Below are positions 8,165 through 42,092 of a stretch of DNA of 64,000 nt, one piece after another. The position numbers were made by a program, and so were the translations under genes. How positions within the stretch are numbered: the first letter of the stretch is position 1; each line of letters opens with the position of its first letter. Origin of the DNA: Nitrospinia bacterium (lineage in GTDB: Bacteria > Nitrospinota > Nitrospinia > Nitrospinales > JAJDAT01). The notes beneath the pieces are model-generated. The model was not told where the DNA came from. It worked only from the letters and a program-made list of their open reading frames with translations, and did no database searches. The stretch lies in the NCBI GenBank assembly GCA_029261715.1, contig JAJDAT010000025.1, positions 434,001 to 498,000 on the forward strand, written 5' to 3'.

Positions 8165-8176
8165 CTTATTCCTCAA

Positions 8177-8419: not shown

Positions 8420-10915
8420 ATGCCCGCTGAAGGACACAATACTACTTCCTATTTTGATTCCAGCGCTCGTATTGTTTGCCGTTATCCGAAAATAATATTG
8501 GGAATTATTTTTCTTTTTACGTCAGTACTTCTCGCGCAAGTGCCTAATTTGAAAATGGAAACTGCCACCGAAGCATTATTTTATGAGAATGACCCCGTTC
8601 TTTTAAAATATAGGGAATTTCAGGCGCAGTTTGGACGGGATGACTTAATCGTCATAGCGATCAACCCTCCTGAAGTATTTGATTTAAAGTTTCTAAACCG
8701 GTTGAAGGATTTCCATAATGCATTAGAGAAAGAAGTTCCTCATATAAAAGAGGTGACTAGCCTTATCAATGCCCGCTCCACAGAAGGCAAAGAGGATGAA
8801 CTAATCGTTGAAGATCTCATGGAAGATTGGCCTGAGGATGCTAATGCTTTGGCCGATTTAAAACGACGGGCTTTGGCCAATCCTCTTTATGAAAATTCAT
8901 TACTCTCCAAAGACGCTCGTTTTACCACAGTGGTTATTGAACCTTTAAATTTTTCGTCGCCAGTGGGTAGTTCTCAAAGTCTTACAGGAGAACAAGAGAT
9001 GGATTTGCTTTCTGGCTTCGACGAAGAAGACGATTTATCAGAGTCAGAATTGGAAGAGAAGCCTGAACCGCCTGTCGAACGCCAACAACTTTCTGAGGTT
9101 GAGATCAACGAGATTGTGGAGACCGTAGAGAAAGTTATTAAGGATTATCAAGGGCCAGATTTCCCTCTTTATATGGGGGGGGCACCGATCATCGATTACG
9201 TGGTAAAAGCCAATATGCAAAGAGATATGGGGCTTTTTATGAACTTATCATTAGTAATCATCGGAGTATTCCTTTTTATTCTTTTTCGCAGGTTGAGTGG
9301 GGTTATTCTTCCTTTGCTAGTGGTTATTTGCTCACTAGTTTGTACCTTCGGTCTTATGGCTATTGCTGGAGTGCCCGTTAAAGTACCGACCCAGATTCTA
9401 CCTTCTTTTTTATTGGCTGTCGGTGTGGGAGATTCTGTACACGTACTCACTATTTTCTATCGCCATTTCAGGCTTGGATATTCCAAAAATGAGTCTATCC
9501 TTTATGCGATGTCTCACTCAGGTGGGGCCATTATCATGACCAGTGTCACTACTGCGGGAGGATTGGCTTCTTTTATTTCTTCCGATATAGCGCCGATTGC
9601 CGATCTTGGCATTTTTGCGCCGATAGGCGTTATGCTGGCTATGCTTTTTAGCGTTGTCATGCTTCCGGCATTGCTTATCGTACTTCCGCTTCATCAGGAA
9701 AAAATTCTTAAAGAAAGTGATGAGAAAATAAATAAAAAGAAGAGGGAAAAATTAGACAAAATTATCACCCGGATTGCAGATTTTTCTATAAGTAATCCAA
9801 AGAGGATAATGGTCATAAGCTTTCTCTTATTAATATTCTCCATTGCAGGAGCGTTCAAGCTGGGTTTTTCCTATGCGCCTCTCACTTGGTTTCCTGAGGA
9901 ACAGAGAGTCAGAGGAGATACAAGGGTCATCGATGAGAATCTCAGAGGAAGTAACTCACTGGAAGTTCTGGTGGATACAGAAAAGGAAAACGGATGGTAC
10001 GAACCTGACCTTTTGATCAAACTTGATAAGCTCGCCGAGTATATGGAAAATTATCAGTCAGGAAAAGTATACGTTGGGCATGCCTCGTCAGTGTCTGATC
10101 AATTAAAGGAAATTCATCAGGCGTTGAACGAAAACAGAAAAGAGTTTCGCGTTATCGCCGATAACAGAAATTTGGTGGCGCAGGAATTTTTAATGTTTGA
10201 AAACAGCGGCTCGGATGATCTGGAAGATGTGGTGGATAAACAATTCTCCCTTGCCCGATTTACCATGAAGCTTCCCGTCCTTGACGCCGTAGAATATACC
10301 GAACTCATTGAACATGTCGAAGACAAATTTAATGAAACATTTGGGGACGCAGCGAAAATAACGGTAACGGGTATTGTGGCTATCCTTATGCGAACTATAA
10401 CAGCCATGTCCTCTAGCATGGTGAAAAGCTATTTGATCGCTTTCGTCGTGATTGCCGTTTTAATGATTTTTGTGATGAAAAATATTCGACTTGGAATATT
10501 TAGTATGATCCCCAACCTGCTTCCTATCATCATTACACTTGGGATGATGGGGTGGTGCGGTCTTTCTCTGGATGCGTTCACGCTTCTTATTGGAAGTATA
10601 GCAATTGGGTTGGTTGTTGATGACACTATTCATTTTATGCACAACTTCACAAAATACTATGAAAAGTCAGGGGACCCGCGTGAAGCGGTACACCATACCT
10701 TGCAGACCACAGGGCGCGCGGTTCTATTTACGAGTTTGATTCTTTCCTCCGGATTTTTTATATTCATGTTTGCTTCCATGAGTAACCTTTTCAACTTTGG
10801 TTTTCTCACCGGATTCACCATTCTCACTGCATTGCTAGCGGAATTTACTTTGACTCCGGCGCTTATGGTTTTGATTGTAAAAAAAGAAAGGCCGCAGAGT
10901 ATCGGGGAAAAATAA
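8420..10915 (+). CDS. RND-superfamily MMPL-type exporter
   Basis: 831 residues with the two-fold layout of COG1033/MMPL transporters: a first membrane helix (about 20-42), a large periplasmic domain (about 45-275), five helices (about 280-430, including PSFLLAVGVGDSVHVL), a second helix and periplasmic domain (about 465-675), and a final helix block (GSIAIGLVVDDTIHFMHNF). The Asp residues in GVGDS and VVDDT are those expected for proton-driven RND pumps of lipids such as hopanoids or mycobacterial lipids. An acidic insert (about 190-225) in the first periplasmic loop is unusual. GGAGG precedes the ATG. It is the first gene of the plus-strand array; with the LolA-like and barrel proteins downstream it probably exports the array's product. 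Confidence 0.88.
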   Translation: MPAEGHNTTSYFDSSARIVCRYPKIILGIIFLFTSVLLAQVPNLKMETATEALFYENDPVLLKYREFQAQFGRDDLIVIAINPPEVFDLKFLNRLKDFHNALEKEVPHIKEVTSLINARSTEGKEDELIVEDLMEDWPEDANALADLKRRALANPLYENSLLSKDARFTTVVIEPLNFSSPVGSSQSLTGEQEMDLLSGFDEEDDLSESELEEKPEPPVERQQLSEVEINEIVETVEKVIKDYQGPDFPLYMGGAPIIDYVVKANMQRDMGLFMNLSLVIIGVFLFILFRRLSGVILPLLVVICSLVCTFGLMAIAGVPVKVPTQILPSFLLAVGVGDSVHVLTIFYRHFRLGYSKNESILYAMSHSGGAIIMTSVTTAGGLASFISSDIAPIADLGIFAPIGVMLAMLFSVVMLPALLIVLPLHQEKILKESDEKINKKKREKLDKIITRIADFSISNPKRIMVISFLLLIFSIAGAFKLGFSYAPLTWFPEEQRVRGDTRVIDENLRGSNSLEVLVDTEKENGWYEPDLLIKLDKLAEYMENYQSGKVYVGHASSVSDQLKEIHQALNENRKEFRVIADNRNLVAQEFLMFENSGSDDLEDVVDKQFSLARFTMKLPVLDAVEYTELIEHVEDKFNETFGDAAKITVTGIVAILMRTITAMSSSMVKSYLIAFVVIAVLMIFVMKNIRLGIFSMIPNLLPIIITLGMMGWCGLSLDAFTLLIGSIAIGLVVDDTIHFMHNFTKYYEKSGDPREAVHHTLQTTGRAVLFTSLILSSGFFIFMFASMSNLFNFGFLTGFTILTALLAEFTLTPALMVLIVKKERPQSIGEK

Positions 10916-10974
10916 TTTATAAGTTGAGATTATTTCATTGAAAATTTATTCAGATATTAAAATAGAGGAGTGTC

Positions 10975-11862
10975 ATGAAAGATAATGAAGCAAGTTCAAC
11001 CGCGTTCACCGTATTGCATGGCCTTTTATATATTTCCAAGCATCCTCGTCATAATTATCTAGTTGATGAGAAAGTTGTTGAAGTGGGTCAAAAAATACTT
11101 TCTGCTTCTGAAAAAGGGAAAAAAATGTTACGCCAATTGGACAACCCTTTGACAAAAATAATAGTCCCCATAGCGGAAAAGATGTTGCTACCTGGGATAA
11201 CGCTTCATTATATTTTACGTAAACGGTTCATTGAAGAAGCAACTCGTGAGTCTATCGCAAATGGTAAAACGCAAGTTATCAGTCTGGGAGCAGGGTTCGA
11301 TACTCTGGCATACCGCCTGCACCAAGAATTCCCCGATGTAAACTTTATCGAAATAGACCATCCTGCTACCAATGCTATGAAGTCTCAAGCTTTGTTTGGA
11401 GATGGGCAGATACCCGAAAATCTGAACTTGCTCGCCGTCGATTTCAGCAAACAGAATCTGCTGGATGCCTTGAGTGAATTTTCAGCGTTCGATTCGTCGC
11501 GTCCTACTCATTTCATTTGCGAAGGCGTTCTTATGTATTTGCTGGTTAAGGATGTGACCATACTTTTGGAATCGCTCAAAAAACTAACGGGAAGTGGAAC
11601 CCGTTTCGTATTCACTGCCCTTTCGCCCAAGGATAGCCCAACGAACAACACGGGCCCGCTTTTAAATGTTTATCTATGGTTCAAAAAAGAGCCTCTCAAA
11701 TGGGCGATTGAGAGAGAAGATGTTTCGGAGTTTCTTACCAAACACGACTTTAAAACTTTGGAGACTGCTTCCACTGATACTTTCAGGTCTCGGTATCTTG
11801 CGAAGGAACACAAAGATGAACTGCATCAGGGGGAATATATTGTACTGTCAGAAATTCTCTGA
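10975..11862 (+). CDS. Class I SAM-dependent methyltransferase (PPM1/PPM2/TcmP-like)
   Basis: 295 residues. The SAM-binding motif ISLGAGFDTLAYRL, the acidic strand NFIEIDHPAT and the post-motif FICEGVLMYL match the leucine carboxyl methyltransferase/TcmP family, which methylates carboxyl or hydroxyl oxygens in polyketides and other metabolites. GAGGAG lies before ATG 10975. It sits between the exporter and the NRPS, ending 8 bases before the NRPS start, so it is almost certainly co-transcribed. Inferred role: O-methylation, perhaps of a carboxyl group on the NRPS product or a precursor. Substrate cannot be read from the sequence. Confidence 0.87.
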   Translation: MKDNEASSTAFTVLHGLLYISKHPRHNYLVDEKVVEVGQKILSASEKGKKMLRQLDNPLTKIIVPIAEKMLLPGITLHYILRKRFIEEATRESIANGKTQVISLGAGFDTLAYRLHQEFPDVNFIEIDHPATNAMKSQALFGDGQIPENLNLLAVDFSKQNLLDALSEFSAFDSSRPTHFICEGVLMYLLVKDVTILLESLKKLTGSGTRFVFTALSPKDSPTNNTGPLLNVYLWFKKEPLKWAIEREDVSEFLTKHDFKTLETASTDTFRSRYLAKEHKDELHQGEYIVLSEIL

Positions 11863-11870
11863 ATAGAGCT

Positions 11871-14800
11871 ATGTCTTCACTTTTTCCTCTCACTTCTAAC
11901 CAAAGAGACGTTTGGGTAGACCAGACGTTTCATCCTGGTGTGCCTTTTTATAACATTGGCGGTTATCTAAAAGTTGACGGCGAGATCAACCGAAATGTTT
12001 TTGAAAAAGCTATGCAAAGGGTTGTGCGGGAAAACGATGCCCTGAGGATCGTATTACATAAAGGCAATCCTCTTCCAATGCAGGAAATCAGGGAAGATGC
12101 AGAATTCGATCTCCCGTTTATAGATTATTCTGCAGAAGAAAATCCCATGCAGAAAGCTGAAACTTGGATGCGGAAGGAGTTTGTCAAACCGTTTGAATTG
12201 TATGGTCAATTTCTTGTCCGTTACGCACTGATCAAATTATCGGATCAGCGTTACTGCTGTTTCACCAATCAACATCATCTGATAGCCGATGGTCTGTCTA
12301 CTCTTATAATGAGCCATCGATTTGCCGATGCTTACAACGATATAATTAATAAGAGTAACAGGATTTCTTCATTCCCTTCATACCAAAAGTTCATATATGC
12401 CGATCAGGAGTTTGTTCAATCTAAAAAATTTGAGAAATGCAAAACTTTTTGGAAGGAAACCTATCGCGATCTACCTGAGCCTTTAATAACTACCTGTCAT
12501 GTAGAAGCCGAGGGTTCTGCCTCAATTGAGGGAGGTTTTTCATCTCTCTGGATTAAACGCGCACTGTATCAATCTCTAGAAAATTTTTGTGAGAATCAGG
12601 GGGTTACGCCTTATCATTTACTCCTTGCAGCTTTGTATACTTGTTTCCTTCGAGCGGGAAGAGGAGAAGACTTTGTCTATGGAGCCCCAGTTTCGAACCG
12701 GACCACCGCAGAGTCTAAAAAAATTATTGGTCTCTTTACCAGTGTTAGTCCGATGCGCTTCCGTTTCGGACTTGATTTAGAAACGTCTGAACTTTTGCAG
12801 CTAATCAGCAAGGAGCTAAAGCGCACGTATCGTTACCAGCGCCTACCACTCAGTGAAATTAATAAGCTTTGTGGGATATATAAGGAGAATGGTCGGCAAT
12901 TATTTGACTTAACAGTATCCTATGAAAAGAATGATTACGATATGAACTTCAATGGAGCTACAGCGAATGCTGTTACCTATGCAAATGGGTTTCAGAAAAA
13001 CGCGCTTTCAATAGCTCTCAAAGAATATCGGAAAGATGAAGATATTCGACTAGACTTTTCTTATAACCTCCGGGCATTTGACAAAGAAGAGATTGAATAT
13101 CTAAAAGAACGTGTTCTGTTCATTATGGAAGAGATGTCGCTCCATCCAAATGTTCCAGTAAGAAAACTCGAACTCCTTCCCGAAAAAGAAAAACGGGACA
13201 TCCTTGAAATATGGAATCTAACACAAACGGAAATTCCTGCAGGGCTTGCCCATCATTTTTTCGAAGAACAGGAAAAAACGGCTCCTGAAAAAACGGCGGC
13301 TGTATATGGAGATCAGCAGATAACTTACCGGCAGCTGAATGAGGAGGCGAATCAGCTATCGCGTTATTTATCATCGCGAGGGGTGGGGGCAGAAAGTCTT
13401 GTCGGTGTCTTCATAGAGCGTTCTATCGACATGCTAATCGGAATTCTGGCTGTTATCAAGGCTGGAGGAGCCTACGTTCCTCTTGATCCATCTTACCCAG
13501 AAGAACGTATTACTTTTATGCTTGAAGACTCGGGAGCGAAAGTAGTCTTGACCGAGGAAAAACTCTTGTCTGTTTTGCCCAAAGTTTGTGGGGAATCTAT
13601 TTGTCTCGATCGCGACCAACACGCATGGAGTGATTTAAGTACCAGTAATTCCTTTTCCGAAGTAGGTCCGGATAGCCTTGCTTATGTCATATACACTTCG
13701 GGGTCCACTGGAAAACCAAAAGGGGTCATGATTGCCCATAGGAGTCTTAGTAATTTGATAAAGACTCAGGCTCGTATTCTCTTCGTCAAACCGGAAAGTA
13801 AGATGCTGCAATTTTCTTCCTTTAGTTTTGACGCTTCCGTTTGGGAAATTTTCATAACGCTTGGTTCAGGCGCCACGCTCATCCTTGCGCCGAAAGACGA
13901 GATCATGCCAGGCCCGGATTTAATCCAAACTCTAAATAGTCATGGCATTACCCATCTCACTCTTCCGCCATCATCATTGGGGGTTCTTCCAGAAAACCCT
14001 CTACCGTCACTTCAAACTTTGGTAACGGCAGGGGAGGCTTGTCTTGCTGAGTTGGCTAAAAAGTGGGGGAAAGGAAGGCGGTTTATTAATGCCTATGGTC
14101 CTACGGAATCCACGGTTTGCGCGTGCACTTGGGAATATAATGGGAAGATTGGAAAGCCACCTATAGGACGTCCCTTCGACAATGTTCAATTATATATTTT
14201 AGATGAAGATCTTCAACCTCTCCCAGTGGGAGGGATCGGTGAATTGTGCATTGCGGGTGTGGGTCTTGCCAGAGGCTATCTAAACAGGCCGGACTTGACG
14301 CAGGAAAAGTTTATTTCAAATCCTTTTAGTAAAGATGGCGCGCGTTTATACAAAACAGGGGATTTTGCCCGCTGGGGCGCTGACGGAAATATAGAATTTC
14401 TCGGCAGAATGGACCAGCAGGTCAAACTCAGAGGATTCCGCATCGAGCTTGAGGAAATAGAAGCTGTGCTAAGAGAACATTCTTCGGTACAAGACGCTGT
14501 TGTTGTTATGACAGGGAATGGACTTCATGGAAAACAGTTAGCGGCTTATTTCACAGAAAATGTGGAAAACAAGAATACGGATAAATCAGCAGACTTGCAG
14601 GTTTTTCTAAAGGAGAAACTTCCGGCCCACATGGTTCCTCGTTTCGTAATACCTTTTGAAAAATTTCCATATACACCAGGCGGAAAACTTGACCGAAAGG
14701 CTTTACCAGAACCAGATAGTTCTCTTAAAAGAAAAATAGATTCGAGTGAGCCCATTAACGACATAGAAAAAGCTCTTTTGAAAATTTGGAAACAAGTGAT

Positions 14801-15731
14801 GGGTGAGAAGGAAATAAGCGTCGATGACAACTTTTTCGACGAAGGTCTAGATTCTTTACAGGCAGTGGAGTTCATCTGCCATATGGAGGAAAAATTTGAT
14901 ATCAGAGCTCAGCCGGGAACTCTCTTTCAAAAGGGAACTCTTAAAAGCTTGGGTAGATACATCGAGTCTAGAAAACTTTTAGGTAAAGTTACCTCTAAAA
15001 CTCTTGTTGAAATTCAGATAAAGAATGGTCTTCTACCTTTTTTTTGTGTGACAGCAGGCTATGGTGATGTACTCGCTTTTCGGGAGCTGGCTGTGAAAAT
15101 GAAGCGATCTTTTTACGTTCTCCAGCCGCCACCAAGAAATGAAACTATCAACGCTTTGGATATTAAAAATCTGGCAGCATTGTATGTCGCGAATTTGCGA
15201 ACGGTACAAGAAGCTGGTCCTTACTGTCTTGGCGGTTATAGCGCCGGGGGTGTTCTGGCATTTGAAATGGCTCAACAATTGAAAGCGGCAGGTGAAGAAG
15301 TTCATGCGCTGGTGATTTTAGGAACGCCAGTCACTCATGGGGCGTTCGGTCAGCGAGTGTATCGTTTTCTTATGAAGACTGTTCCACTATTTCTTCCTGA
15401 ACAGAGCCAGAATCAATCTAGCATGATAAGAATCCTTAGGGCGCTTTTCATGGATGAGGGATTGAAGATTCACTTGGAAAGTCTGACCGGCTATAAGCCT
15501 GCTACTTATCCTGGTAAAATTACTATTTTTGAGGGACGCAACGCATCGTCACGGTTTTATCCATGGCAAAAAAAGTGGCGTAAAATAGCAGAAGTCCTTG
15601 AAATCATGTTAATTTCAGGTAACCATGATAGCTTCATTAGATCTCCGAACAATAGAGAGCTTGCTTACAGTTTGGAGTCGTGCCTGAGCAAAGACACGAC
15701 TAGTTTAGATAATGAATTTTCTAACACTTGA
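11871..15731 (+). CDS. Single-module nonribosomal peptide synthetase (C-A-T-TE)
   Basis: 1286 residues with four domains. Condensation (about 5-430) has the active HHLIADG motif (His135-His136). Adenylation (about 455-960) has YTSGSTGKPKG (608-618), NAYGPTE, YKTGD and PGGKLDRK. The thiolation domain (about 985-1050) carries the phosphopantetheine serine in GLDSL (Ser995). Thioesterase (about 1070-1286) has GYSAGG (Ser1124) and a late GNHD histidine. Reading the ten specificity positions against GrsA gives D-A-W-S-V-A-A-V-C-K, close to the phenylalanine code D-A-W-T-I-A-A-I-C-K, so an aromatic amino acid is predicted. A condensation domain in a first and only module suggests acylation of that amino acid with a fatty acyl group, followed by release. 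The gene is complete and embedded in a lipid-related operon. Confidence 0.93.
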   Translation: MSSLFPLTSNQRDVWVDQTFHPGVPFYNIGGYLKVDGEINRNVFEKAMQRVVRENDALRIVLHKGNPLPMQEIREDAEFDLPFIDYSAEENPMQKAETWMRKEFVKPFELYGQFLVRYALIKLSDQRYCCFTNQHHLIADGLSTLIMSHRFADAYNDIINKSNRISSFPSYQKFIYADQEFVQSKKFEKCKTFWKETYRDLPEPLITTCHVEAEGSASIEGGFSSLWIKRALYQSLENFCENQGVTPYHLLLAALYTCFLRAGRGEDFVYGAPVSNRTTAESKKIIGLFTSVSPMRFRFGLDLETSELLQLISKELKRTYRYQRLPLSEINKLCGIYKENGRQLFDLTVSYEKNDYDMNFNGATANAVTYANGFQKNALSIALKEYRKDEDIRLDFSYNLRAFDKEEIEYLKERVLFIMEEMSLHPNVPVRKLELLPEKEKRDILEIWNLTQTEIPAGLAHHFFEEQEKTAPEKTAAVYGDQQITYRQLNEEANQLSRYLSSRGVGAESLVGVFIERSIDMLIGILAVIKAGGAYVPLDPSYPEERITFMLEDSGAKVVLTEEKLLSVLPKVCGESICLDRDQHAWSDLSTSNSFSEVGPDSLAYVIYTSGSTGKPKGVMIAHRSLSNLIKTQARILFVKPESKMLQFSSFSFDASVWEIFITLGSGATLILAPKDEIMPGPDLIQTLNSHGITHLTLPPSSLGVLPENPLPSLQTLVTAGEACLAELAKKWGKGRRFINAYGPTESTVCACTWEYNGKIGKPPIGRPFDNVQLYILDEDLQPLPVGGIGELCIAGVGLARGYLNRPDLTQEKFISNPFSKDGARLYKTGDFARWGADGNIEFLGRMDQQVKLRGFRIELEEIEAVLREHSSVQDAVVVMTGNGLHGKQLAAYFTENVENKNTDKSADLQVFLKEKLPAHMVPRFVIPFEKFPYTPGGKLDRKALPEPDSSLKRKIDSSEPINDIEKALLKIWKQVMGEKEISVDDNFFDEGLDSLQAVEFICHMEEKFDIRAQPGTLFQKGTLKSLGRYIESRKLLGKVTSKTLVEIQIKNGLLPFFCVTAGYGDVLAFRELAVKMKRSFYVLQPPPRNETINALDIKNLAALYVANLRTVQEAGPYCLGGYSAGGVLAFEMAQQLKAAGEEVHALVILGTPVTHGAFGQRVYRFLMKTVPLFLPEQSQNQSSMIRILRALFMDEGLKIHLESLTGYKPATYPGKITIFEGRNASSRFYPWQKKWRKIAEVLEIMLISGNHDSFIRSPNNRELAYSLESCLSKDTTSLDNEFSNT

Positions 15732-15740
15732 TTTGCAACT

Positions 15741-17012
15741 ATGAAAATTACTATTGCGACACTTGGAACACGAGGCGACGTTCAACCCTGCATTGCCGTG
15801 GGGCTTGGTCTTCAGGCTTCCGGACATGAAGTAAAGATAGCGGTGCCGGTTGATTATAAGGATTTGGTTCTTGAGAAGGGGTTAGGTTTCTTTCCCATTC
15901 GAAATAGCTTTCGACAAATTTTTGAAAGAGAGCCTGGTGGAAGTCGCTTGAAAGAAGAGTTGAGTCCCATACGTATGCTTTGCCAACGAAGAAGCGTGGT
16001 TGAGCCTGTAGTTGACCAGATTTTTTCTGACCTGTGGTCCTCCTGTCAGGGAGCGGATGTGGTTTTGTATTCGATTTTGGCTTTGCCTGCTTATTATTTC
16101 GCCAAAGACTTAGATCTTCCCGCTTTTCCTATTTGTATGCAGCCACTTAGTCGAACCCGAGCTTTTCCAAGTGTTTTGTTTTCTCCGAACTCTTTAAATA
16201 TGGAATTTATTAACAAGGCAAGTTACATATTGGCGGAGCAGTCTTTGTGGGGATTCATCAGGCCTTACTTTGTCCGATGGCGAAAAAAATTAGGATTGTC
16301 TTCTGTTCCATTCTGGGGGCACTTCAAGCAATTCAATGGAGAAAATAATCCTATATTCAACGGATACAGTCCACTTGTCGTTCCGAAACCATCCGATTGG
16401 GGAAACCGGATGTATGTGACAGGATACTGGTTTTTGGACGATTCTTCTGGGGATTGGCGTCCTCCTCCTGAACTTCTAGATTTTCTTGAAAGCGGGCCTC
16501 CTCCCGTGTGTTTTGGTTTCGGCAGTATGAACGATAATCGTGTTGAAAATAGGATACGGCTTTCTATCGAGGCTTTAAAGAAAACGAAGACACGTGGGAT
16601 TTTTCTCACTGGCAAGAGTGATCTCAATAGAGAGGAATTGTCCTTAAACGATGATATATTTGTGTCTAGTGAAATTCCTCACTCTTGGCTATTCCCTAGA
16701 GTTTCGGCCATCATTCATCATGGCGGCGCTGGCACCACAGCCGCCGCTATAAGGGCGGGTATTCCATCGATTATTATTCCGTTTTTTTTCGATCAATTAT
16801 TCTGGGGAAGGCAACTTAGAGATTTGGGAGTGGGACCGAAACCTATAGATAGGAAAAGGCTCTCCGTGGAAACCTTGTCTTTAGCCTTGCAGGAAACCCT
16901 TAGCAATTATGGATTTCAAGGTAGACTCCAAACTTTAAGCAGTCAGGTAAAAGCAGAAAATGGAGTGCAGGTAGCGGTTGATAACTTTCACCAAGAACTG
17001 GCGCGGATTTAA
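15741..17012 (+). CDS. GT1/GT28-like glycosyltransferase (MGT/sterol-glucosyltransferase type)
   Basis: 423 residues with a GT-B fold. The N-terminus MKITIATLGTRGDVQP with its GxRGDVQP signature is typical of UGT-like enzymes that glycosylate sterols, macrolides and lipids. The C-terminal donor-binding half contains PPPVCFGFGSMN, SEIPHSWLFPRVSAIIHHGG with AGTTAAAIRAGIPSIIIPFFFDQ, and the HHGGAGTT motif for nucleotide-sugar binding. No signal peptide, so it is cytoplasmic or peripheral. It begins 9 bases after the NRPS stop, implying one transcript. Inferred role: adding a sugar to the NRPS-derived lipid or to another lipid made by the cluster. Confidence 0.9.
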   Translation: MKITIATLGTRGDVQPCIAVGLGLQASGHEVKIAVPVDYKDLVLEKGLGFFPIRNSFRQIFEREPGGSRLKEELSPIRMLCQRRSVVEPVVDQIFSDLWSSCQGADVVLYSILALPAYYFAKDLDLPAFPICMQPLSRTRAFPSVLFSPNSLNMEFINKASYILAEQSLWGFIRPYFVRWRKKLGLSSVPFWGHFKQFNGENNPIFNGYSPLVVPKPSDWGNRMYVTGYWFLDDSSGDWRPPPELLDFLESGPPPVCFGFGSMNDNRVENRIRLSIEALKKTKTRGIFLTGKSDLNREELSLNDDIFVSSEIPHSWLFPRVSAIIHHGGAGTTAAAIRAGIPSIIIPFFFDQLFWGRQLRDLGVGPKPIDRKRLSVETLSLALQETLSNYGFQGRLQTLSSQVKAENGVQVAVDNFHQELARI

Positions 17013-17123
17013 GAAGACTAAAATGAGTATTGTTTGAAAACCTTAGCTATTAACTAACCAAGATCTGAGATCTAAATTTTATACGAACACATTGTTGAAA
17101 AGAACTCCCATTATTAAAACACA

Positions 17124-19421
17124 ATGAACCAACACAACCCCACTTCATCAATTAACGAAATATTGAAACATTTAAAATCCACTAAGCTCTTTAAGGATTT
17201 AAACGAAAAGGTATTGCAAAAACTAGCGGCAGAAGCGGAATGGATATCGCTTAAAAAAGACGAGGTCCTTTTTCAGCGTCGCGACCCGTCCGATGCTATG
17301 TACATTGCTGTTGGTGAGGGGCTTGCGGTTGTGTTACCTGGAGGCAGTAGAACGCGGTCTGATAACGGGAAATTTGAACTTGGGAATGGCGAGGTTCTGA
17401 TCAGATGTGATGATGGTTCTCAAGCTGTTGCCGTAATAATCAATCCCGGCGAAGCGATAGGCGAAATGCAGTTTTTGACTGGCGGAAAACGTACTGCGGG
17501 GATTAGCGCTTTCAAAGATATAAAAATTATTAAACTGGCTTATCAAGCGTTTCAAAATCTTGGAGATCAGGAACGTAAATTCTTAGAACACTTGGACGAT
17601 ATTGTTCGTAAGCGACTGCAATTTAATCAGCTTGCGGTTATTCTACCTAAACTTTTCGGTGATCTGACGAAAAATGAAGTCGAGGCCATTATCGAACGGG
17701 CTAAATTGATTCAGATAAAACGAAGAGGTGTTTTGTTCAGACAGGGAGATCCGGGGACGGGTTTTTATATTCTCATAAGGGGGCGCTTGGAAGTAGAGAT
17801 AAAGGGTAAAAATGGCGAGAGCGCATGCGTGGGTGAGATAAAACATGGAGAAATCTTAGGAGAAATGTCTCTCCTAACTGACGAAAATCGCTCGGCAACT
17901 ATTTACGCAACTCGTGATTCGGAGTTGTGTGAGTTTTCTAAAGAAGAGTTCAATCAACTTCTTGAGAAATACCCGAAACTTTTAATGCAGATCAGCCAGG
18001 TTCTTATAGAAAGACTTCGCATTTCTAGCGGCTCAAATCAGGAGATCGAACATTGTTCCATAATTACCATTTTGCCCTCAAACTCTAAGACTCCCATAGA
18101 AGATTTTGCAAAACGTTTGACTCAAGAATTGTCGAAAATTTATCCAACACTTCAGATCGACGGTCAAGAAATGGATCGTCTTATGGAAGCTCCGGGAATT
18201 GCGCAAGCGTCTAAAGACGACCCCAGCGTTATAAGAACTTTGGCGTGGATCAATTCTCAAGAACAAAAATATAACTTCATTCTTCTTCAAGCGGACCGAA
18301 CTCTATCGAATTGGACGGACTGGTGTATTCGTCAATCGGACCATATCCTTTTTATCGGAGAAGGAAACGCCGATCCAGCGTTGGGAGAGATTGAAGAAAA
18401 TTTAATGCTTCAAGAGGATTCATTAAGCGCTGATAACTGCTCTCTAATTCTCTTACATCCCAATGGTAATAATCCACCGAAAGGCACGAGGGAGTGGCTT
18501 GAAAAAAGAGATGTGGCGATGACGTTCCATGTACGCTGTGATTCAGATAAAGATTTTAAGCGTTTGGCGAGATTTCTTACAGGCACGTCTACAGGAGTGG
18601 CCTTGAGTGGCGGTGGAGCTAGAGGGTTTGCCCATATTGGCGCGCTAAAAGCTTTGGAAGAAGCGGATATACTGGTTGATATGATTGGCGGGACCAGTAT
18701 GGGAGCTGTTATCGCAGTCCAATATGCTATGGGATGGAGCTGTGAAAAAATTTCAGAGGAACTTGGCGATAATATCAAGGATATGGCATTTGATCTGACC
18801 CTCCCAATGACTTCCTTGTTCGAAGGAGCAAAAATGTCTAAAGGGTTAAAAAAGAATTTGGGAGATACGTACTTCGAAGATCTTTGGATTCCATTTTTTT
18901 GCGTTTCGAGCAACCTGACTCGGGCTGAAAAAAAAGTTCACCGGTCCGGACCTTTATGGGAAGGTATACTTGCAAGCAATGCAGCCCCCGGAATTTTCCC
19001 ACCTGTTGTTATTGATGGCGACTTACATGTTGATGGGGCTTTACTCAGTAATTTACCTACCGATACGATGAGCGAGATTTGTAAAGGACCCGTAATCTCT
19101 GTAGATGTTTGCCCAGCGGTAGATATGGCTGAGAACATCCATTACAGTGAAGGCTTATCAGGGTGGAAAATTCTCTGGAGTAAGATCAATCCTTTTGCTA
19201 CCAGGATCTCTACCCCTGGTATCATCGCAATTTTGCAACGCGCGGGCGAGCTAGCCAGTGTGGCAAATCAAAAAAACATTGTAGAAAATATGTCTGACCT
19301 TTACCTGTGTATGCCCGTCGATAAATATAAACTACAAGAATATCATTTGTCGAAGCAAATCGTTGAGGACGGATATCTCTATGCTAAAGAAAAAATTAAA
19401 GAATGGGTAAGTGAAAAATAA
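17124..19421 (+). CDS. NTE-like patatin phospholipase with two cyclic-nucleotide-binding domains
   Basis: 765 residues. Two cNMP-binding-type beta-barrels occupy about 15-155 and 170-300 (each with a GExxGExxxLt segment, such as HGEILGEMSLLTDE). A Rossmann-like middle region (about 310-485, with SDHILFIGEG) follows, as in neuropathy target esterase and yeast Nte1. The C-terminal patatin domain (about 490-690) has the oxyanion motif GGGARG, the nucleophile GTSMG (Ser525) and the DGA acid (Asp637), a complete Ser-Asp dyad. The family hydrolyses phospholipids and lysophospholipids. There is a 111-base gap before it but no visible terminator. In this cluster it could release fatty acids from membrane lipid, possibly under nucleotide control. 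Confidence 0.92.
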   Translation: MNQHNPTSSINEILKHLKSTKLFKDLNEKVLQKLAAEAEWISLKKDEVLFQRRDPSDAMYIAVGEGLAVVLPGGSRTRSDNGKFELGNGEVLIRCDDGSQAVAVIINPGEAIGEMQFLTGGKRTAGISAFKDIKIIKLAYQAFQNLGDQERKFLEHLDDIVRKRLQFNQLAVILPKLFGDLTKNEVEAIIERAKLIQIKRRGVLFRQGDPGTGFYILIRGRLEVEIKGKNGESACVGEIKHGEILGEMSLLTDENRSATIYATRDSELCEFSKEEFNQLLEKYPKLLMQISQVLIERLRISSGSNQEIEHCSIITILPSNSKTPIEDFAKRLTQELSKIYPTLQIDGQEMDRLMEAPGIAQASKDDPSVIRTLAWINSQEQKYNFILLQADRTLSNWTDWCIRQSDHILFIGEGNADPALGEIEENLMLQEDSLSADNCSLILLHPNGNNPPKGTREWLEKRDVAMTFHVRCDSDKDFKRLARFLTGTSTGVALSGGGARGFAHIGALKALEEADILVDMIGGTSMGAVIAVQYAMGWSCEKISEELGDNIKDMAFDLTLPMTSLFEGAKMSKGLKKNLGDTYFEDLWIPFFCVSSNLTRAEKKVHRSGPLWEGILASNAAPGIFPPVVIDGDLHVDGALLSNLPTDTMSEICKGPVISVDVCPAVDMAENIHYSEGLSGWKILWSKINPFATRISTPGIIAILQRAGELASVANQKNIVENMSDLYLCMPVDKYKLQEYHLSKQIVEDGYLYAKEKIKEWVSEK

Positions 19422-19450
19422 AGACCAAAGATTTTTTGAGAATATGAACT

Positions 19451-20461
19451 ATGTGGCAAGGTTTTGTCGTATTACTTATTTTTGCAGTATGGGCTTTCCT
19501 TGATTATGATTTTGCGCCGGTAGCATCTTCATTGGCGGAAGCTAATTGGGCGCTAATCGGATTAGGGATGACGCTGAATGTCTCTCTCTTATATTTAAGG
19601 GTTTTCAAATGGAGATTTTTTTTAAGCGCCTTTAAAACTTTTTCTTTTTTTAATATGTCGTTGGCTGCTTTTGCGGCTTACACCTGCAATATGGTGATTC
19701 CCGCCAAGGTAGGCGGCGCTATTCAAGCCTGGCTACTGAGTAAAAAGGAACCGATAAGCGCGAGCAGCGCGTTTGGAACTGTGGTTTTGACACGTGTTAT
19801 GGATGCTATAACCCTTTCGGTTATTGGCCTACTGGTTTTTAGTACCATGGAGATTCCGCTTGATAAGAGTCACTACTGGGAATCTTACAGAAATGCAGGG
19901 ATTATTATTACCGTTTCTCTTCTTTCGCTTATAGTTTTTCTGTTCATATTCAGGAACCATAAGAATATTGAGAACGGTTTTAAACGTCTTGCAATTCGTT
20001 TTGTCCCAGCTCGAATGCAAACCTCAACCGAAAAAGTAATAACTTTGTTTTGGGAAGGATTTGAGGTTTTAAATCAGCGCCGAACTCTGGGAATTATTGT
20101 CATCCTCAATTTCACGTTCTGGGGTTTAGTTGCGACCACAATATTCATTTATATAAAAGCATTCGGCATCAGTGATATCCCCATGACCGCGCCGCTGTTC
20201 ATACTTCTGGCGCAAGCAATCGGATTCATGATTCCATCACCCGGGAATATTGGTCCATTTCACGCGGCTACTGTCGTAGGGCTTTCATTTTATGGCGTGG
20301 TTGGCGAACTTGCTCTTTCAATCGCTATTATTATGCACGCCGCAATGTTTATAACCAATTCTCTGCCCGGCCTGATTTACTTATGGATAGGAAACTTGAA
20401 AATTTCAGCTATCATCAGGGAGGCAGAACTGAATTTGACAAAGGCCAATGAAAATACCTGA
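19451..20461 (+). CDS. Flippase-like integral membrane protein (LPG synthase TM-domain / UPF0104 family)
   Basis: 336 residues, almost entirely membrane helices (about eight). The motifs LRVFKWRFFLSAF, AAFTCNM-like AAYTCNMVIPAKVGG, VLTRVMDA and PSPGNIGPFHAATVVGLSFYGV are characteristic of the UPF0104/AglD2 family, related to the flippase part of lysylphosphatidylglycerol synthase. It lacks the aminoacyl transferase half of MprF. ATG 19451 lies 29 bases after the patatin gene. Inferred role: moving a lipid, such as the cluster's lipid product, across the inner membrane before the RND pump takes it. Confidence 0.85.
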   Translation: MWQGFVVLLIFAVWAFLDYDFAPVASSLAEANWALIGLGMTLNVSLLYLRVFKWRFFLSAFKTFSFFNMSLAAFAAYTCNMVIPAKVGGAIQAWLLSKKEPISASSAFGTVVLTRVMDAITLSVIGLLVFSTMEIPLDKSHYWESYRNAGIIITVSLLSLIVFLFIFRNHKNIENGFKRLAIRFVPARMQTSTEKVITLFWEGFEVLNQRRTLGIIVILNFTFWGLVATTIFIYIKAFGISDIPMTAPLFILLAQAIGFMIPSPGNIGPFHAATVVGLSFYGVVGELALSIAIIMHAAMFITNSLPGLIYLWIGNLKISAIIREAELNLTKANENT

Positions 20462-20534
20462 TGCTCAGTGAAGCATTGCAAAACCGCTCCTGAAAAGTAT
20501 GAAACCATTAGGATTTTAAACGGCCCTTATAGAT

Positions 20535-20541
20535 AAGGAGG
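20535..20541 (+). promoter_or_regulatory. Strong Shine-Dalgarno deciding a TTG start
   Basis: AAGGAGG lies five bases before TTG 20547. The following residues form a signal peptide, supporting TTG as the start of the LolA-like gene. Confidence 0.75.
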
Positions 20542-20546
20542 AAGAG

Positions 20547-21362
20547 TTGAATATTTCGCGAATGCTATCAGTAACTTTGTTACTAAGTTTATCTTTTTTG
20601 CTGACGCCTATCTTTGCTTCATCAGGTTTTGCGCTTACCGGATTGGAGATCATGGAAAAAGTCAACGCCAGGGATGACGGTGATAAGCAGACATCGGATA
20701 CTGAAATGATTCTCATAGATAAAAGTAAAAACCAAAGAGTAAGAAAGTTGCGCACTTTTAAAAAAGATTTCGGCAAGGATACTCATACGGTTATGTTCTT
20801 TCTTGAACCGGCGAATGTTAAAGATACAGGATTTCTTACCTATGATTATGACACTCCGGGAAAGGATGACGATCAGTGGTTGTATTTGCCGGCTTTGCGT
20901 AAAACCAAACGCATCGCAGGTAGCGATAAAAGCGGCAGCTTCATGGGGTCCGATTTCAATTTTTCCGATATGTCTAAGCGAGACCTAAGCGACTTTAAGT
21001 TCAAGTTGATGAAAGAAGCCAAAATAAAAGGACAGAAGGTTTGGCAGATTGAATCCCTCCCAAAGGATGATGATGTGGCTGACAAAACTGGTTATTCTAA
21101 ATCCATTATATTCGTTCGTCAGGACAACTATGTAGCCATAAGATCGATAAGCTGGGTTTATAAAAGTAATCGGTTAAAGTATAGAAAGGTCAACAAACTT
21201 GAGAAAATTGACGGTGTCTGGATCGTAACTGATGCTCAAATGACAACAAAAGAAGGAAAAACTCGAGTCCATTCTACTATCCTAAGAAATAACAACGTGA
21301 AGTTTAATCAAGATATTAAGGATGATTTTTTTACAACACGTCAACTTGAGAAGGGAATGTGA
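20547..21362 (+). CDS. LolA-like outer membrane lipoprotein-sorting protein family (COG2834)
   Basis: 271 residues starting with a signal peptide (MNISRMLSVTLLLSL..., cleavage after about residue 28), so periplasmic. The mature part begins LTGLEIMEKVNARDDGD and contains TFKKDFGKD, DDQWLYLPALRKTKRI and GSFMGSDFNFSDM, typical of the COG2834/DUF4292-like LolA-fold proteins found beside RND exporters. True LolA (chaperone of lipoproteins) is shorter, so this is a relative that may carry a lipid from the inner-membrane exporter. TTG start with a strong AAGGAGG. It is followed 46 bases later by an outer-membrane barrel gene. Confidence 0.87.
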   Translation: MNISRMLSVTLLLSLSFLLTPIFASSGFALTGLEIMEKVNARDDGDKQTSDTEMILIDKSKNQRVRKLRTFKKDFGKDTHTVMFFLEPANVKDTGFLTYDYDTPGKDDDQWLYLPALRKTKRIAGSDKSGSFMGSDFNFSDMSKRDLSDFKFKLMKEAKIKGQKVWQIESLPKDDDVADKTGYSKSIIFVRQDNYVAIRSISWVYKSNRLKYRKVNKLEKIDGVWIVTDAQMTTKEGKTRVHSTILRNNNVKFNQDIKDDFFTTRQLEKGM

Positions 21363-21408
21363 ATACGTTGCACAACAGAACTTTGGATCTCCATGAAGGA
21401 TTATCATT

Positions 21409-22896
21409 TTGAATAGCATATTTGGCGCACGATTTTATTTAATCTCTAGCATCATTTTATTATTTTCATTTAGCGCTCCTATATATTGTTTAGCTGAGGA
21501 GTTGGTTAACAAAAATGAGCTAGAAGTAGAAGAAGCTCTTTCCGAATTTGATGATCTCGAGGATATTGGGGATAAGCCTGCCGATAAAAATGAGTTGGAA
21601 GTAGGAGAGGCTCTTTCTGGATTCGGTGATCTCGAGGATACAGAAAAACCTTTAGCAGAATCTATAATCGAAGAACCTTCATGGCTTCAATTAGATGGTT
21701 TTGTTCGTCTAAACGGAAATTTAAACCATGCGCATGACGCTCCTCAGCCAGGTCAACCCGATTTTCGTGGTCTTTCCCAACTTCGGACAACGGTTAAGCT
21801 TGAAGTCCCTGTGACAATCTCAAATGATTGGAAAGCTTTAATTAATACCCAAATTTTTTATGATTTTTCATACCTTGCTAAGGGCCGTGAAAATTTCTCC
21901 AATGAACTACTGGATTTATACGAATCGGAGGCGGAACTACGTGAATTCTATGTCAATGGTTCGCTCACGTCTGATTTGGATGTAAAGGTAGGCCGACAAA
22001 TTATGGTGTGGGGATTTGCTGATTTTACCAGGATTGTTGACGTTTTGAATCCATTGGATAATCGCGTACCGGGGGTAGTGAATGTTGAAGATATCCGACT
22101 TCCAACAACAATGGCTCGAGCAGATTACTACTTTGGCGACTGGCGCTTTACTGGGACATTTATTCCAGAAATCCTCTTCACTAAGGAACCTGTTTTTAAT
22201 AGTGACTTTGCCCCGCCTTTTGCGCCAACCAAACCGGAAATGATTCCTGAAGACTTTAAAGATTTTGAGTATGGATTAGAGTTGAAAAAATCATTTTCTG
22301 GCGGTGATATAGCTTTTTATTGGTCGGAATTTTATGACGATCTCGCTGTGGATAGTGGGGGAGGGACCAACACAACTTTAACTCATAGCTCTATCGATAT
22401 GGCTGGATTTGCAATAAATTACGTTTATGAGGATTGGATATTTAAAGCAGAAACCGCCTTCCTTGAGGGTTTTCAGTTCTCAAACCTTCCCGCTGGCCAT
22501 ACCCGATCGCGTTTAGATGCTATGTTGGGATTTGAATACTTTGGTTTCAAAGATACGACAATTACAATGGAAATAGTCAACCGTCATATTAATAACTTTG
22601 AACCCACCCTAGAACGGCCTAACGATTTTGCCCTGGAAAATCTCACTCAATACCTTGGCTACTATACAGGTGACTTTATGAATGACAGATTGCACGTCGA
22701 CGCTTTGGTTTCCCCGTTCAGCGGAGACGGTTCTTATCAAGGGACGATTCAGCGTTATTCTGTCGCCTATGATCTTAATGATGATTTATCTGCTCAGCTG
22801 GGGTGGATCGGTTATTCCAGCGGAAAAGATTATATCCTAACCGAGATCTATCAAGATAATGACCGTTTTTATTTTGAAACAAAATATAGTTTTTAA
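21409..22896 (+). CDS. Outer-membrane beta-barrel protein (DUF1302-like)
   Basis: 495 residues with a TTG start eight bases after AAGGA. The signal peptide ends at about residue 29 (IYCLAEE). An acidic region follows, in which a 25-residue unit is tandemly repeated (KNELEVEEALSEFDDLED, then KNELEVGEALSGFGDLED). The remaining 400 residues alternate in beta-strand fashion (LQLDGFVRLNGNLNHA, VKVGRQIMVWGFADFTRIVDVLNP, ending YFETKYSF with a C-terminal aromatic), typical of an outer-membrane barrel. The GRQIMVWGxxDxxRxxDVLNP segment is characteristic of DUF1302-like proteins often seen beside COG1033 exporters. It would be the outer-membrane end of the export route. Its stop overlaps the next start by one base. 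Confidence 0.85.
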   Translation: MNSIFGARFYLISSIILLFSFSAPIYCLAEELVNKNELEVEEALSEFDDLEDIGDKPADKNELEVGEALSGFGDLEDTEKPLAESIIEEPSWLQLDGFVRLNGNLNHAHDAPQPGQPDFRGLSQLRTTVKLEVPVTISNDWKALINTQIFYDFSYLAKGRENFSNELLDLYESEAELREFYVNGSLTSDLDVKVGRQIMVWGFADFTRIVDVLNPLDNRVPGVVNVEDIRLPTTMARADYYFGDWRFTGTFIPEILFTKEPVFNSDFAPPFAPTKPEMIPEDFKDFEYGLELKKSFSGGDIAFYWSEFYDDLAVDSGGGTNTTLTHSSIDMAGFAINYVYEDWIFKAETAFLEGFQFSNLPAGHTRSRLDAMLGFEYFGFKDTTITMEIVNRHINNFEPTLERPNDFALENLTQYLGYYTGDFMNDRLHVDALVSPFSGDGSYQGTIQRYSVAYDLNDDLSAQLGWIGYSSGKDYILTEIYQDNDRFYFETKYSF

Positions 22897-23846
22897 TGGC
22901 TTCGAATTCCGCAAACAATTACCAACTAAAGTTCAATCCAGGTAGCGCTATTGTTTTGACCGTGATTCATGGTATGGCCTTACTTGCTTTTTTCCCGTTT
23001 GCGTTTTCGTGGAACGCTGTAGGAATCATGTTTTTCCTTTACTGGCTCACTGGTTCATTAGGCATCTGTTTGACCTATCATCGTTATCTCACTCATCGTA
23101 GTTTTAAGTTACGTAAATGGCTTGCCTATACTCTAGCATTCATTGGCTGTCTTGCTTTTCAGAGTGGTCCAATTAATTGGGCCGGTCAGCATCGTATGCA
23201 TCATGCTGGTTCTGACACTGTTGAAGACCCACATAGCGCCGCAAAAGGTTTCTGGTGGTCGCATATGCTATGGACGTTCTTCCTCCACACTAAATTTAAT
23301 AATGAAAAAGTCATTCACGATTACACCAATGATTTTAATAAAGATAAATATTATCAATTTTTGGACAAATATTTCATGCCCATTCAATTTGTTTTTGCCC
23401 TCATTCTCTATATTATAGGAGGGGTTCCTTGGGTTGTTTGGGGAGTTTTCGTGCGTCTGGTTTTAGTGCTTCATTTCACTTGGTTGGTTAATAGCGCGGC
23501 TCATTGTTTTGGCTACACTAATTTCTCTTTGAAGGGCGATCTTTCGACCAATTGCTGGTGGGTAGGTCTTTTAGCCTGGGGAGAAGGTTGGCATAATAAC
23601 CATCATGCCTTCCCTAATTCAGCGCGCCACGGCTTGCGTACCTGGGAAATTGATATGACATGGTGGATCATTTGTTTTTTTGAAAAAATTGGGTTAGCCA
23701 AAGATATTAAAACCGTTAAGTTGACTTCTGATCCTGCATTTAAAAAGAATGAAGTTGGGAATGAAAGCGCTTCCTTCATCGCCGAAAAAATCACGAGATC
23801 AGTTTCTCCGTCAGGATATGAAAAAACAAATTCTCTTTATTTCTAA
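22896..23846 (+). CDS. Acyl-CoA/acyl-lipid delta-9-type fatty acid desaturase
   Basis: 316 residues, four membrane helices and all three histidine boxes of membrane di-iron desaturases: HRYLTH (HxxxxH), HRMHH (HxxHH) and HNNHH (HxxHH, in EGWHNNHHAFP). The arrangement matches stearoyl-CoA delta-9 desaturases (GITYHR-like start LTYHRYLTHRSF). It introduces a cis double bond into a saturated acyl chain using O2. The start overlaps the barrel gene's stop by one base, so it is translationally coupled. It probably tailors the acyl chain of the lipid made here, though general membrane fluidity is an alternative. Confidence 0.93.
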   Translation: MASNSANNYQLKFNPGSAIVLTVIHGMALLAFFPFAFSWNAVGIMFFLYWLTGSLGICLTYHRYLTHRSFKLRKWLAYTLAFIGCLAFQSGPINWAGQHRMHHAGSDTVEDPHSAAKGFWWSHMLWTFFLHTKFNNEKVIHDYTNDFNKDKYYQFLDKYFMPIQFVFALILYIIGGVPWVVWGVFVRLVLVLHFTWLVNSAAHCFGYTNFSLKGDLSTNCWWVGLLAWGEGWHNNHHAFPNSARHGLRTWEIDMTWWIICFFEKIGLAKDIKTVKLTSDPAFKKNEVGNESASFIAEKITRSVSPSGYEKTNSLYF

Positions 23847-23891
23847 TTTGGGATTCAATCATCCAAAGTAAATAGCGAGTCAGGCTTTGCA

Positions 23892-24803
23892 ATGAAAAAA
23901 ATAGAAATTCCAGGAGAATACAAGAGAGTTTATGCGGGGCGTTGGATAGGGAGCTGTCTTTTTGACTATGTTTGTATTTTGGGTTCAATGATCGTAGCCA
24001 AGCAGGTAGATCATTCGATAGCATACATAGCGGCCATTATAGTAATCGGAGCTCGCCAGCATGCATTAGGGATTTTAGCGCATGATGGCGCTCATGGATT
24101 GATCACGAGAAACCGTGTACTCAATGAAATACTGTGGCGACCGCTTTGTTTTTTTCCTTTTTTTGTAGCGCCTCAGGCATACAGAGACTTTCACTTCAAT
24201 CATCACAGATTTTCTACAACTGAGAAGGACCCAGAAGTTCAGAGTAAATACGTAGGTGGAGATATCTGGCGACTTCCAGTTACCCGGCGGGATATTGTTC
24301 TCGGTATTTTTAAGGATTTCTTCCTTCTTCATTTATTTAAAAAAAGAGGAAAAAAGATACCTGATGGAATCGCTCCGAGAACTCTAGGAGAAATAATACC
24401 CATTGTCCTTTTTTGGGTTCTGGTTATGGCTTTGGTTTATCTCGCGGCAGGCTGGTACTTTCTCTTTATGTGGTTGGTATCAATCCCCACCACTTTGGTA
24501 GCTTTTAGTCGCCTCCGGGTTTGGAGCGAACATACCGGGATCAATGGTACGCACCGTTTCGATACCTCTTGGTGGGAGCGCTTTTTCATATTTCCTCACA
24601 ATACCTGGTGCCATTGGGAACATCATCAATATCCCTTTGTGCCTTTTTATTACCTTACCCAGGTTAGAAAACTGGATGATGACGAACCGATACTTTCATC
24701 TTTTTGGAAGTTGGTCGATCTTTTTTCGCAAAGTCCCCCCATCGCGAGCGGACACACCGGTTTGTCTTTGCCAAGTGTATCCCGTCAGCCGAGTTCCGTT
24801 TGA
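23892..24803 (+). CDS. Membrane fatty acid desaturase (second type)
   Basis: 303 residues. Histidine boxes HDGAH (HxxxH), HFNHH (HxxHH) and HWEHH (HxxHH, followed by QYPFVPFY) with helix pairs between them place it in the FA_desaturase family (PF00487), a different branch from the delta-9 enzyme just upstream (HxxxH in box one). Such enzymes desaturate or hydroxylate acyl chains, carotenoids or sphingoid bases. It is 45 bases downstream of the first desaturase and is the last gene of the array. Two distinct desaturases in tandem suggest a polyunsaturated or desaturated-hydroxylated chain; which position it acts on cannot be read. Confidence 0.9.
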   Translation: MKKIEIPGEYKRVYAGRWIGSCLFDYVCILGSMIVAKQVDHSIAYIAAIIVIGARQHALGILAHDGAHGLITRNRVLNEILWRPLCFFPFFVAPQAYRDFHFNHHRFSTTEKDPEVQSKYVGGDIWRLPVTRRDIVLGIFKDFFLLHLFKKRGKKIPDGIAPRTLGEIIPIVLFWVLVMALVYLAAGWYFLFMWLVSIPTTLVAFSRLRVWSEHTGINGTHRFDTSWWERFFIFPHNTWCHWEHHQYPFVPFYYLTQVRKLDDDEPILSSFWKLVDLFSQSPPIASGHTGLSLPSVSRQPSSV

Positions 24804-42088: not shown

Positions 42089-42092
42089 AGCG

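What the first reader, a model, noticed from the sequence alone, without database searches (positions are those of the whole stretch)
11871..15731. Stand-alone C-A-T-TE NRPS predicted to activate an aromatic amino acid and start with an acyl donor
Seen: a condensation domain precedes the only adenylation domain, and the specificity positions read D-A-W-S-V-A-A-V-C-K, differing from the GrsA Phe code at three conservative places. A terminal C domain with no upstream module is the layout of lipo-initiation modules. Inference: the product is an N-acyl (Phe-like) amino acid or its ester, not a peptide.
Basis: partly seen in the sequence, partly recalled or inferred. Interest (0 to 1): 0.6.

Follow-up and report, generated by a model that had tools for sequence, protein, structure and literature searches.

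The report
One-module lipid–amino-acid synthetase in export operon
A Nitrospinota bacterium carries a one-module enzyme that most likely joins a fatty acid (or similar acid) to phenylalanine, and its gene sits with a sugar-attaching enzyme inside a lipid-export operon, which suggests an undescribed sugar-decorated amino-acid lipid.

Summary
The gene at 11871-15731 is an intact one-module NRPS, C-A-T-TE, as described. One detail is wrong: aligned to GrsA, the specificity code is D-A-W-T-V-A-A-V-C-K (position 278 is T, not S), a published Phe code. In a 70-domain tree the C domain lies in a fully supported starter clade (SrfAA-C1, RzmA-Cs, DhbF-C1, EntF); placing it with LCL domains is rejected. 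The genome has no other complete C domain. The tree cannot tell a fatty-acyl donor from an aryl one. What is new is the context. An ortholog (about 55% identical) in another order is again followed by a glycosyltransferase, an NTE-type lipase and a flippase-like protein. In the window these genes lie inside an MMPL–LolA-like–DUF1302 cassette that elsewhere is contiguous. Both thioesterases lack the usual acid after strand 6 and carry a glutamate after strand 7, the rare arrangement reported for ObiF and SulM. Best reading: a lipo-initiating synthetase making N-acyl-phenylalanine, probably then glycosylated and exported. The product and everything after acylation are inferred. New variant of a known kind (serrawettin- and pyreudione-type synthetases).

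The parts
11871..15731 (+). one-module NRPS, C-A-T-TE, 1286 aa
   Evidence: ortholog 55-56% identical over full length in G063
11883..13205 (+). condensation domain (aa 5-445), starter type, HHLIADG at aa 135-141
   Evidence: Pfam; tree and AU test
13260..14687 (+). adenylation domain (aa 464-939), code DAWTVAAVCK, Phe predicted
14772..14963 (+). carrier (T) domain (aa 968-1031), phosphopantetheine Ser995 in LDSL
   Evidence: Sfp-size PPTase candidate in genome, G000:C1:106577
15039..15728 (+). thioesterase (from aa 1057): Ser1124, His1252; Gly1151 in place of the usual acid after strand 6, Glu1221 after strand 7
   Evidence: position-I/II comparison in PMC11298585
15741..17012 (+). GT1-type glycosyltransferase; best PDB matches yeast sterol 3-beta-glucosyltransferase and GtfA/GtfB; conserved next to the ortholog (68%)
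17124..19421 (+). NTE-type patatin lipase with two cNMP-binding domains; conserved in G063 (54-57%)
19451..20461 (+). LPG_synthase_TM / flippase-like membrane protein; conserved in G063 (50%, second copy 58%)
8420..10915 (+). MMPL/HAE3-type RND lipid exporter; 59-60% in G063
10975..11862 (+). LCM / TIGR00027 SAM methyltransferase, 8 bp before the NRPS; only a 28-29% relative in G063, so accessory
20547..21362 (+). LolA-like periplasmic protein (PF17131); 73-76% in G063
21409..22896 (+). DUF1302 outer-membrane protein; 52% in G063; MMPL-LolA-DUF1302 contiguous in G061 and Prevotella, all three adjacent in Haliovirga
22896..23846 (+). DesA-family fatty-acid desaturase (possible acyl-chain supply; not seen in G063 contigs)
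23892..24803 (+). second FA_desaturase-superfamily oxygenase, distant GntB-like

Best explanation
The protein is a lipo-initiating one-module NRPS. The A domain activates L-Phe as its adenylate and loads it on Ser995 of the T domain. The starter C domain takes an acyl group from an acyl-CoA or acyl-ACP (most likely a fatty acyl) and amidates the Phe amine. There is no epimerase, so the residue stays L. The TE releases a small N-acyl-phenylalanine, probably by a Ser1124-His1252-Glu1221 triad. The operon then probably glycosylates this lipid (GT), may modify it further (methyltransferase, patatin lipase, desaturases) and moves it to the envelope through the LPG_TM, MMPL, LolA-like and DUF1302 proteins. 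Shown by sequence: the domains, the starter-type C domain, the Phe code, the absence of another NRPS, and the conserved linkage. Inferred: chain type, release chemistry, glycosylation and export.
For: Architecture. Starter clade 100/100 and rejection of LCL placement. Of the eight best plasmid matches examined, all but one unannotated locus and one frame-split gene have the matched C domain at the very start of the annotated NRPS, the place of initiation domains. Small gate residues where RzmA has R148 (Thr in the window, Ile in the ortholog) fit a longer acyl chain by the published rule (PMC7804268). Phe code DAWTVAAVCK, reported as L-Phe in PMC9866976. No other complete C domain and no stand-alone A-T donor found. 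PPTase candidate present. NRPS-GT linkage and GT-NTE-LPG_TM linkage conserved in another order, with MMPL, LolA-like and DUF1302 orthologs also in that genome. MMPL-LolA-DUF1302 is a recurring three-gene cassette, and in the window the biosynthetic block lies inside it. TE acid in position II, as in ObiF and SulM, which release small products.
Against: No biochemistry. The starter clade includes aryl-accepting domains (DhbF-C1, EntF), and PMC13142362 also notes that aryl initiators cluster with starters, so the donor could be aromatic. The gate-residue rule does not hold for every starter (SrfAA-C1 has Met in this alignment; its long chain is from general knowledge). The ortholog's code is DSSTIGAVCK, so the amino acid is not conserved. 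The GT resembles sterol glucosyltransferases, and the genome has a squalene-hopene cyclase, so the GT acceptor may be another lipid. In G063 the MMPL and LolA/DUF1302 genes are on other contigs, so their linkage there is not shown. The TE model is low-confidence (pLDDT 53).
Confidence: 0.68

Rival explanations
1. The C domain uses an aromatic acyl donor (a benzoate- or cinnamate-type acid on an aryl carrier protein), as EntF and DhbF do; the product is an N-aroyl-phenylalanine, for instance a chelator or a pigment-like compound, not a lipid.
For: DhbF-C1 and EntF fall in the same starter clade. A 442-aa ligase-like ORF lies about 1 kb after the ACP-like frame at G000:C25:105-106 kb, in what looks like an aryl-polyene-type locus.
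Against: DhbF and EntF sit in the sister subclade with RzmA, and both have Phe at the gate where the window has Thr. No aryl acid-AMP ligase or ArCP in the cluster. Neighbours are lipid-type (MMPL, NTE, desaturases, LPG_TM).
Confidence: 0.15
2. The NRPS takes part in making a complex membrane lipid: the amino acid is attached by the TE or C domain to a hopanoid, glycolipid or phospholipid acceptor, and the GT glycosylates that acceptor, not a free N-acyl-Phe.
For: GT closest in PDB to sterol 3-beta-glucosyltransferase; squalene-hopene cyclase in G000, G063 and G061; MMPL related to HAE3 and, weakly, HpnN/BstA transporters.
Against: A starter C domain implies N-acylation first. The cyclase also occurs in G061, in which no C domain at E <= 1e-20 was found. 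No hopanoid gene among the annotated genes of the operon.
Confidence: 0.12
3. It works as an elongation/termination module in trans: an upstream NRPS or A-T protein elsewhere donates an aminoacyl group, and the product is a dipeptide.
For: Stand-alone C-A-T-TE proteins can be last modules of a longer line (general knowledge).
Against: C domain rejected from the LCL clade; no other complete C domain, and the only other NRPS-like A protein lacks a T domain; genome about 97% complete.
Confidence: 0.04

Closest known systems
One-module C-A-T-TE synthetases: SwrW (serrawettin W1/serratamolide, fatty acyl + Ser) and the pyreudione synthetase (fatty acyl + Pro)
   Same: Single module, N-terminal C domain that initiates with an acyl donor, TE release, small aminolipid product. 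SwrW is described as an aminolipid synthetase in a title cited within PMC3353980; the pyreudione enzyme as a standalone C-A-T-TE NRPS in PMC8719888. Their substrates are from general knowledge.
   Different: Predicted Phe instead of Ser/Pro. Embedded in a conserved operon with glycosyltransferase, NTE lipase and MMPL-LolA-DUF1302 exporter. TE acid in position II. Sequences of SwrW and the pyreudione synthetase were not on hand to compare.
Starter (Cs) condensation domains of lipopeptide synthetases: RzmA-Cs, SrfAA-C1
   Same: Same well-supported clade, intact HHxxxDG; RzmA-Cs is the second-best PDB sequence hit.
   Different: Window and ortholog form their own branch with N-terminal C domains of Eleftheria, Ensifer and Methylomagnum; Thr/Ile at the RzmA R148 position; best plasmid matches only about 32% identical.
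EntF / ObiF1 (C-A-T-TE, aryl-initiated)
   Same: Same domain order; EntF in the same starter clade; ObiF TE shares the acid in position II.
   Different: No aryl-acid loading genes in the cluster; Ser, not Cys, nucleophile (against ObiF); Glu, not Asp; lipid-type neighbours.
GrsA/TycA Phe-activating A domains
   Same: All nine aligned pocket positions identical to GrsA or I-to-V; GrsA is the only PDB hit below 1e-25 for the pocket segment.
   Different: Not followed by an epimerase; part of a starter module preceded by C.

Membership tests
NRPS, complete C-A-T-TE module | All four domains with catalytic motifs | tested here: met
   Pfam hits above cut-off for each; HHLIADG, LDSL, GYSAGG and GKLDRK present
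Starter (Cs) condensation domain | Groups with known starter domains, apart from LCL, DCL and E | tested here: met
   100/100 clade of 19; LCL placement rejected, p-AU 8.5e-57
Starter (Cs) condensation domain | First catalytic domain of the assembly line, with no upstream carrier | tested here: met
   Domain begins at aa 5; no other complete C domain in the genome
Starter (Cs) condensation domain | Uses acyl-CoA or acyl-ACP donor | not testable with these tools
   Needs an assay; gate residue Thr is only suggestive
Phe-activating adenylation domain | Specificity code of Phe type | tested here: met
   DAWTVAAVCK; listed as L-Phe in PMC9866976
Phe-activating adenylation domain | Amino acid activation in vitro | not testable with these tools
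   ATP-PPi exchange required
One-module aminolipid synthetase (SwrW / pyreudione type) | Single Cs-A-T-TE protein, no partner NRPS | tested here: met
One-module aminolipid synthetase (SwrW / pyreudione type) | Sequence homology closer to SwrW or the pyreudione synthetase than to other starters | not tested
   Neither sequence was in a collection searched by name
Type I NRPS thioesterase | Ser/Cys-His-Asp triad with acid after strand 6 | tested here: not met
   Gly1151 at that place in window and ortholog; Glu1221 after strand 7 in both; alternative position reported for ObiF and SulM
MMPL-LolA-DUF1302 cassette | The three genes present as neighbours of one operon | tested here: met
   Present but split by the biosynthetic block in the window; contiguous in G061 and Prevotella, adjacent in Haliovirga

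The most novel reading that the evidence does not exclude
Nitrospinota make a glycosylated N-acyl-aromatic-amino-acid lipid with a single NRPS module and deliver it to the outer membrane with a dedicated MMPL-LolA-DUF1302 exporter. This would be a non-ribosomally made envelope lipid or surface glycolipid class not described before, in which the aromatic amino acid varies by lineage (Phe here, Tyr-like code in the ortholog).
Probability: 0.33. Interest if true: 0.75.

Novelty: new variant of a known kind. Interest (0 to 1): 0.5.

Why it matters
Nitrospinota include major marine nitrite oxidisers, mostly uncultured, and little is known of their secondary metabolism; I found no paper on an NRPS product from them. 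The locus gives a small, testable enzyme with a predicted product mass, ties an NRPS module to an MMPL-LolA-DUF1302 cassette whose cargo I found no description of, and offers a Ser-type thioesterase with a relocated acid for testing whether that layout goes with small products.

Tried and rejected
(1) The genome-contig scan with the full NRPS sequence found nothing; the alignment-based scan found only the G063 ortholog as a close relative, other hits being 19-24%. (2) Two orthologs are known in all; the phylum search covered 77 genomes. (3) The Bacillus spizizenii operon at 2.06-2.09 Mb, first labelled 'pps' in my tree, is iturin/mycosubtilin-like (Asn codes); the row 'PpsA_C1_STARTER' is therefore mislabelled and is not used as a starter reference. 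(4) The RzmA row is the R148A crystal variant as printed; one residue does not affect the tree. (5) Stand-alone AMP-ligases on C5 and C23 (with neighbours that look like MBOAT proteins) were considered as donor-loading enzymes and dropped: no carrier protein near them. (6) The 753-aa C49 protein was considered as a partner NRPS and dropped: partial C, no T. (7) AlphaFold of the TE on two sequences gave pLDDT 53; used only for strand order.

Full report
WHERE IT IS. The window lies in a 5.3-Mb, 52-contig assembly about 97% complete. Its phylum is small in the collection (77 genomes). The close ortholog genome G063 corresponds to the record JAJDAS010000126.1, 'Nitrospinia bacterium isolate OFTM173', and a same-order genome (G046) to a Nitrospinaceae MAG. 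So the window is from the phylum Nitrospinota.

CHECK OF THE OBSERVATION. One ORF, 11871-15731, 1286 aa, holds C, A, T and TE domains, all well above Pfam cut-offs. The A-domain pocket segment aligns without gaps to GrsA (1AMU, residues 224-336), the only PDB hit below 1e-25. DAWTVAAVCK is reported as an L-Phe code in PMC9866976. As single domains the best full-length PDB matches include TycA and GrsA, both Phe enzymes.

STARTER OR ELONGATION. I took condensation domains from B. spizizenii (surfactin, bacillibactin and an iturin-family operon), E. coli EntF, PDB RzmA-Cs and TycC, and the best plasmid and genome matches, 70 in the final tree. The window domain and its ortholog fall in a clade of 19 (support 100/100) with SrfAA-C1 (lipo-initiation), RzmA-Cs (lipo-initiation, structure), DhbF-C1 and EntF (aryl initiation) and only N-terminal C domains. 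LCL, post-epimerase, PKS-type and E domains are elsewhere. Holding the window with the 15 LCL domains costs 129.6 log units (p-AU 8.5e-57). Being N-terminal alone does not put a domain in this clade: SrfAB-C1 and SrfAC-C are N-terminal and group with the post-epimerase type. The clade does not by itself separate fatty from aromatic donors, as also noted in PMC13142362. Two hints favour a fatty chain: the gate position (R148 in RzmA; smaller residues give longer chains, PMC7804268) is Thr in the window and Ile in the ortholog but Phe in DhbF and EntF, and the neighbours are lipid genes.

NO PARTNER NRPS. The genome has one complete condensation domain (this one) and a partial one in a 753-aa protein with A but no T domain. 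Carrier-type domains elsewhere are in stand-alone frames of 85-97 aa, none beside the NRPS-like AMP-ligases on C5, C23 or C49. A phosphopantetheinyl transferase of Sfp size is present.

THE ORTHOLOG. In 77 phylum genomes the only close relative of the C domain is in G063, of another order in the same class (57%). The whole protein is 55-56% identical. Its code is D-S-S-T-I-G-A-V-C-K. The W239S change resembles known Tyr codes (general knowledge), so it may prefer Tyr or another larger aromatic; this is inference.

THE OPERON. Ten genes on one strand from 8420 to 24803 with gaps of at most about 110 bp: MMPL/HAE3 exporter, LCM methyltransferase, NRPS, GT, NTE-type patatin with two cNMP-binding domains, LPG_synthase_TM protein, LolA-like protein, DUF1302 protein and two desaturase-family proteins. 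In G063 the NRPS and GT are adjacent (contig C126, which ends inside the GT gene), and C437 carries the 3' part of a GT gene followed by NTE and LPG_TM. The MMPL ortholog (59-60%) is on C173 and an LPG_TM-LolA-DUF1302 set (58, 73-76, 52%) on C649. The methyltransferase has only a 28-29% relative there and looks accessory. MMPL-LolA-DUF1302 is contiguous in G061 and in a Prevotella plasmid, and the three genes are adjacent in Haliovirga, so in the window the synthesis genes lie inside an export cassette. The GT's nearest solved relatives are sterol 3-beta-glucosyltransferase and GtfA/GtfB, that is, enzymes acting on lipid or phenolic acceptors.

THIOESTERASE. Ser1124 and His1252 are in place. 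The residue that aligns with EntF's catalytic Asp after strand 6 is Gly in both orthologs; Glu1221, at the end of strand 7 and 31 residues before the His, is conserved in both, while EntF has Val there. A low-confidence AlphaFold model gives the strand order expected for this reading. PMC11298585 reports this 'position II' for only ObiF1 and SulM among solved NRPS thioesterases, both with small products, and a D-to-H spacing of 30 residues in SulM (2926 to 2956). The triad Ser-His-Glu is thus a prediction, not shown.

CONCLUSION. I add the corrected code, the conserved operon and export context, the diversified code in the ortholog, and the relocated TE acid. The most likely product is N-acyl-L-Phe (perhaps N-acyl-Tyr in the ortholog), probably glycosylated and exported; the chain, sugar and destination are open.

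Noticed in passing
aa 1151 and 1221 of the NRPS (window 15321-15323, 15531-15533): The thioesterase lacks the usual acid after strand 6 (Gly in window and ortholog) and has a conserved Glu after strand 7, the rare 'position II' layout.
   Followed up: partly
8420-10915 and 20547-22896: An MMPL-LolA-DUF1302 cassette, contiguous in Prevotella and in another Nitrospinia genome, is split here by the NRPS/GT/lipase block.
   Followed up: partly
L022:6642-8903 (G000 contig C49): A 753-aa protein with a partial condensation domain fused to an intact A domain (code DVWMVVGVT, tenth position not checked), no T domain, near a gene that looks like an MBOAT protein; similar 738-749-aa proteins occur in several same-order genomes.
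   Followed up: no
L093 (Ensifer adhaerens plasmid pD, 5899 on): An NRPS whose first C domain is in the same subclade and whose first A domain has the identical code DAWTVAAVC.
   Followed up: no
L111 (G000:C25:100000-112000): What looks like an aryl-polyene-type cluster with a ligase and an ACP-like frame in the same genome; a possible alternative acyl source.
   Followed up: no
6287-8176 (- strand): A B12-binding radical SAM protein divergent from the operon; a 28% similar radical SAM gene lies near the MMPL ortholog in G063 (L032:14874-16316).
   Followed up: no
36425-44420: Bacterial alpha-2-macroglobulin followed by a penicillin-binding protein 1C-type gene, a usual pair.
   Followed up: no
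NRPS versus phrog_28622: The NRPS matches a 5652-position PHROG profile at 713 bits, so an NRPS-like protein has been put in a phage protein family.
   Followed up: no
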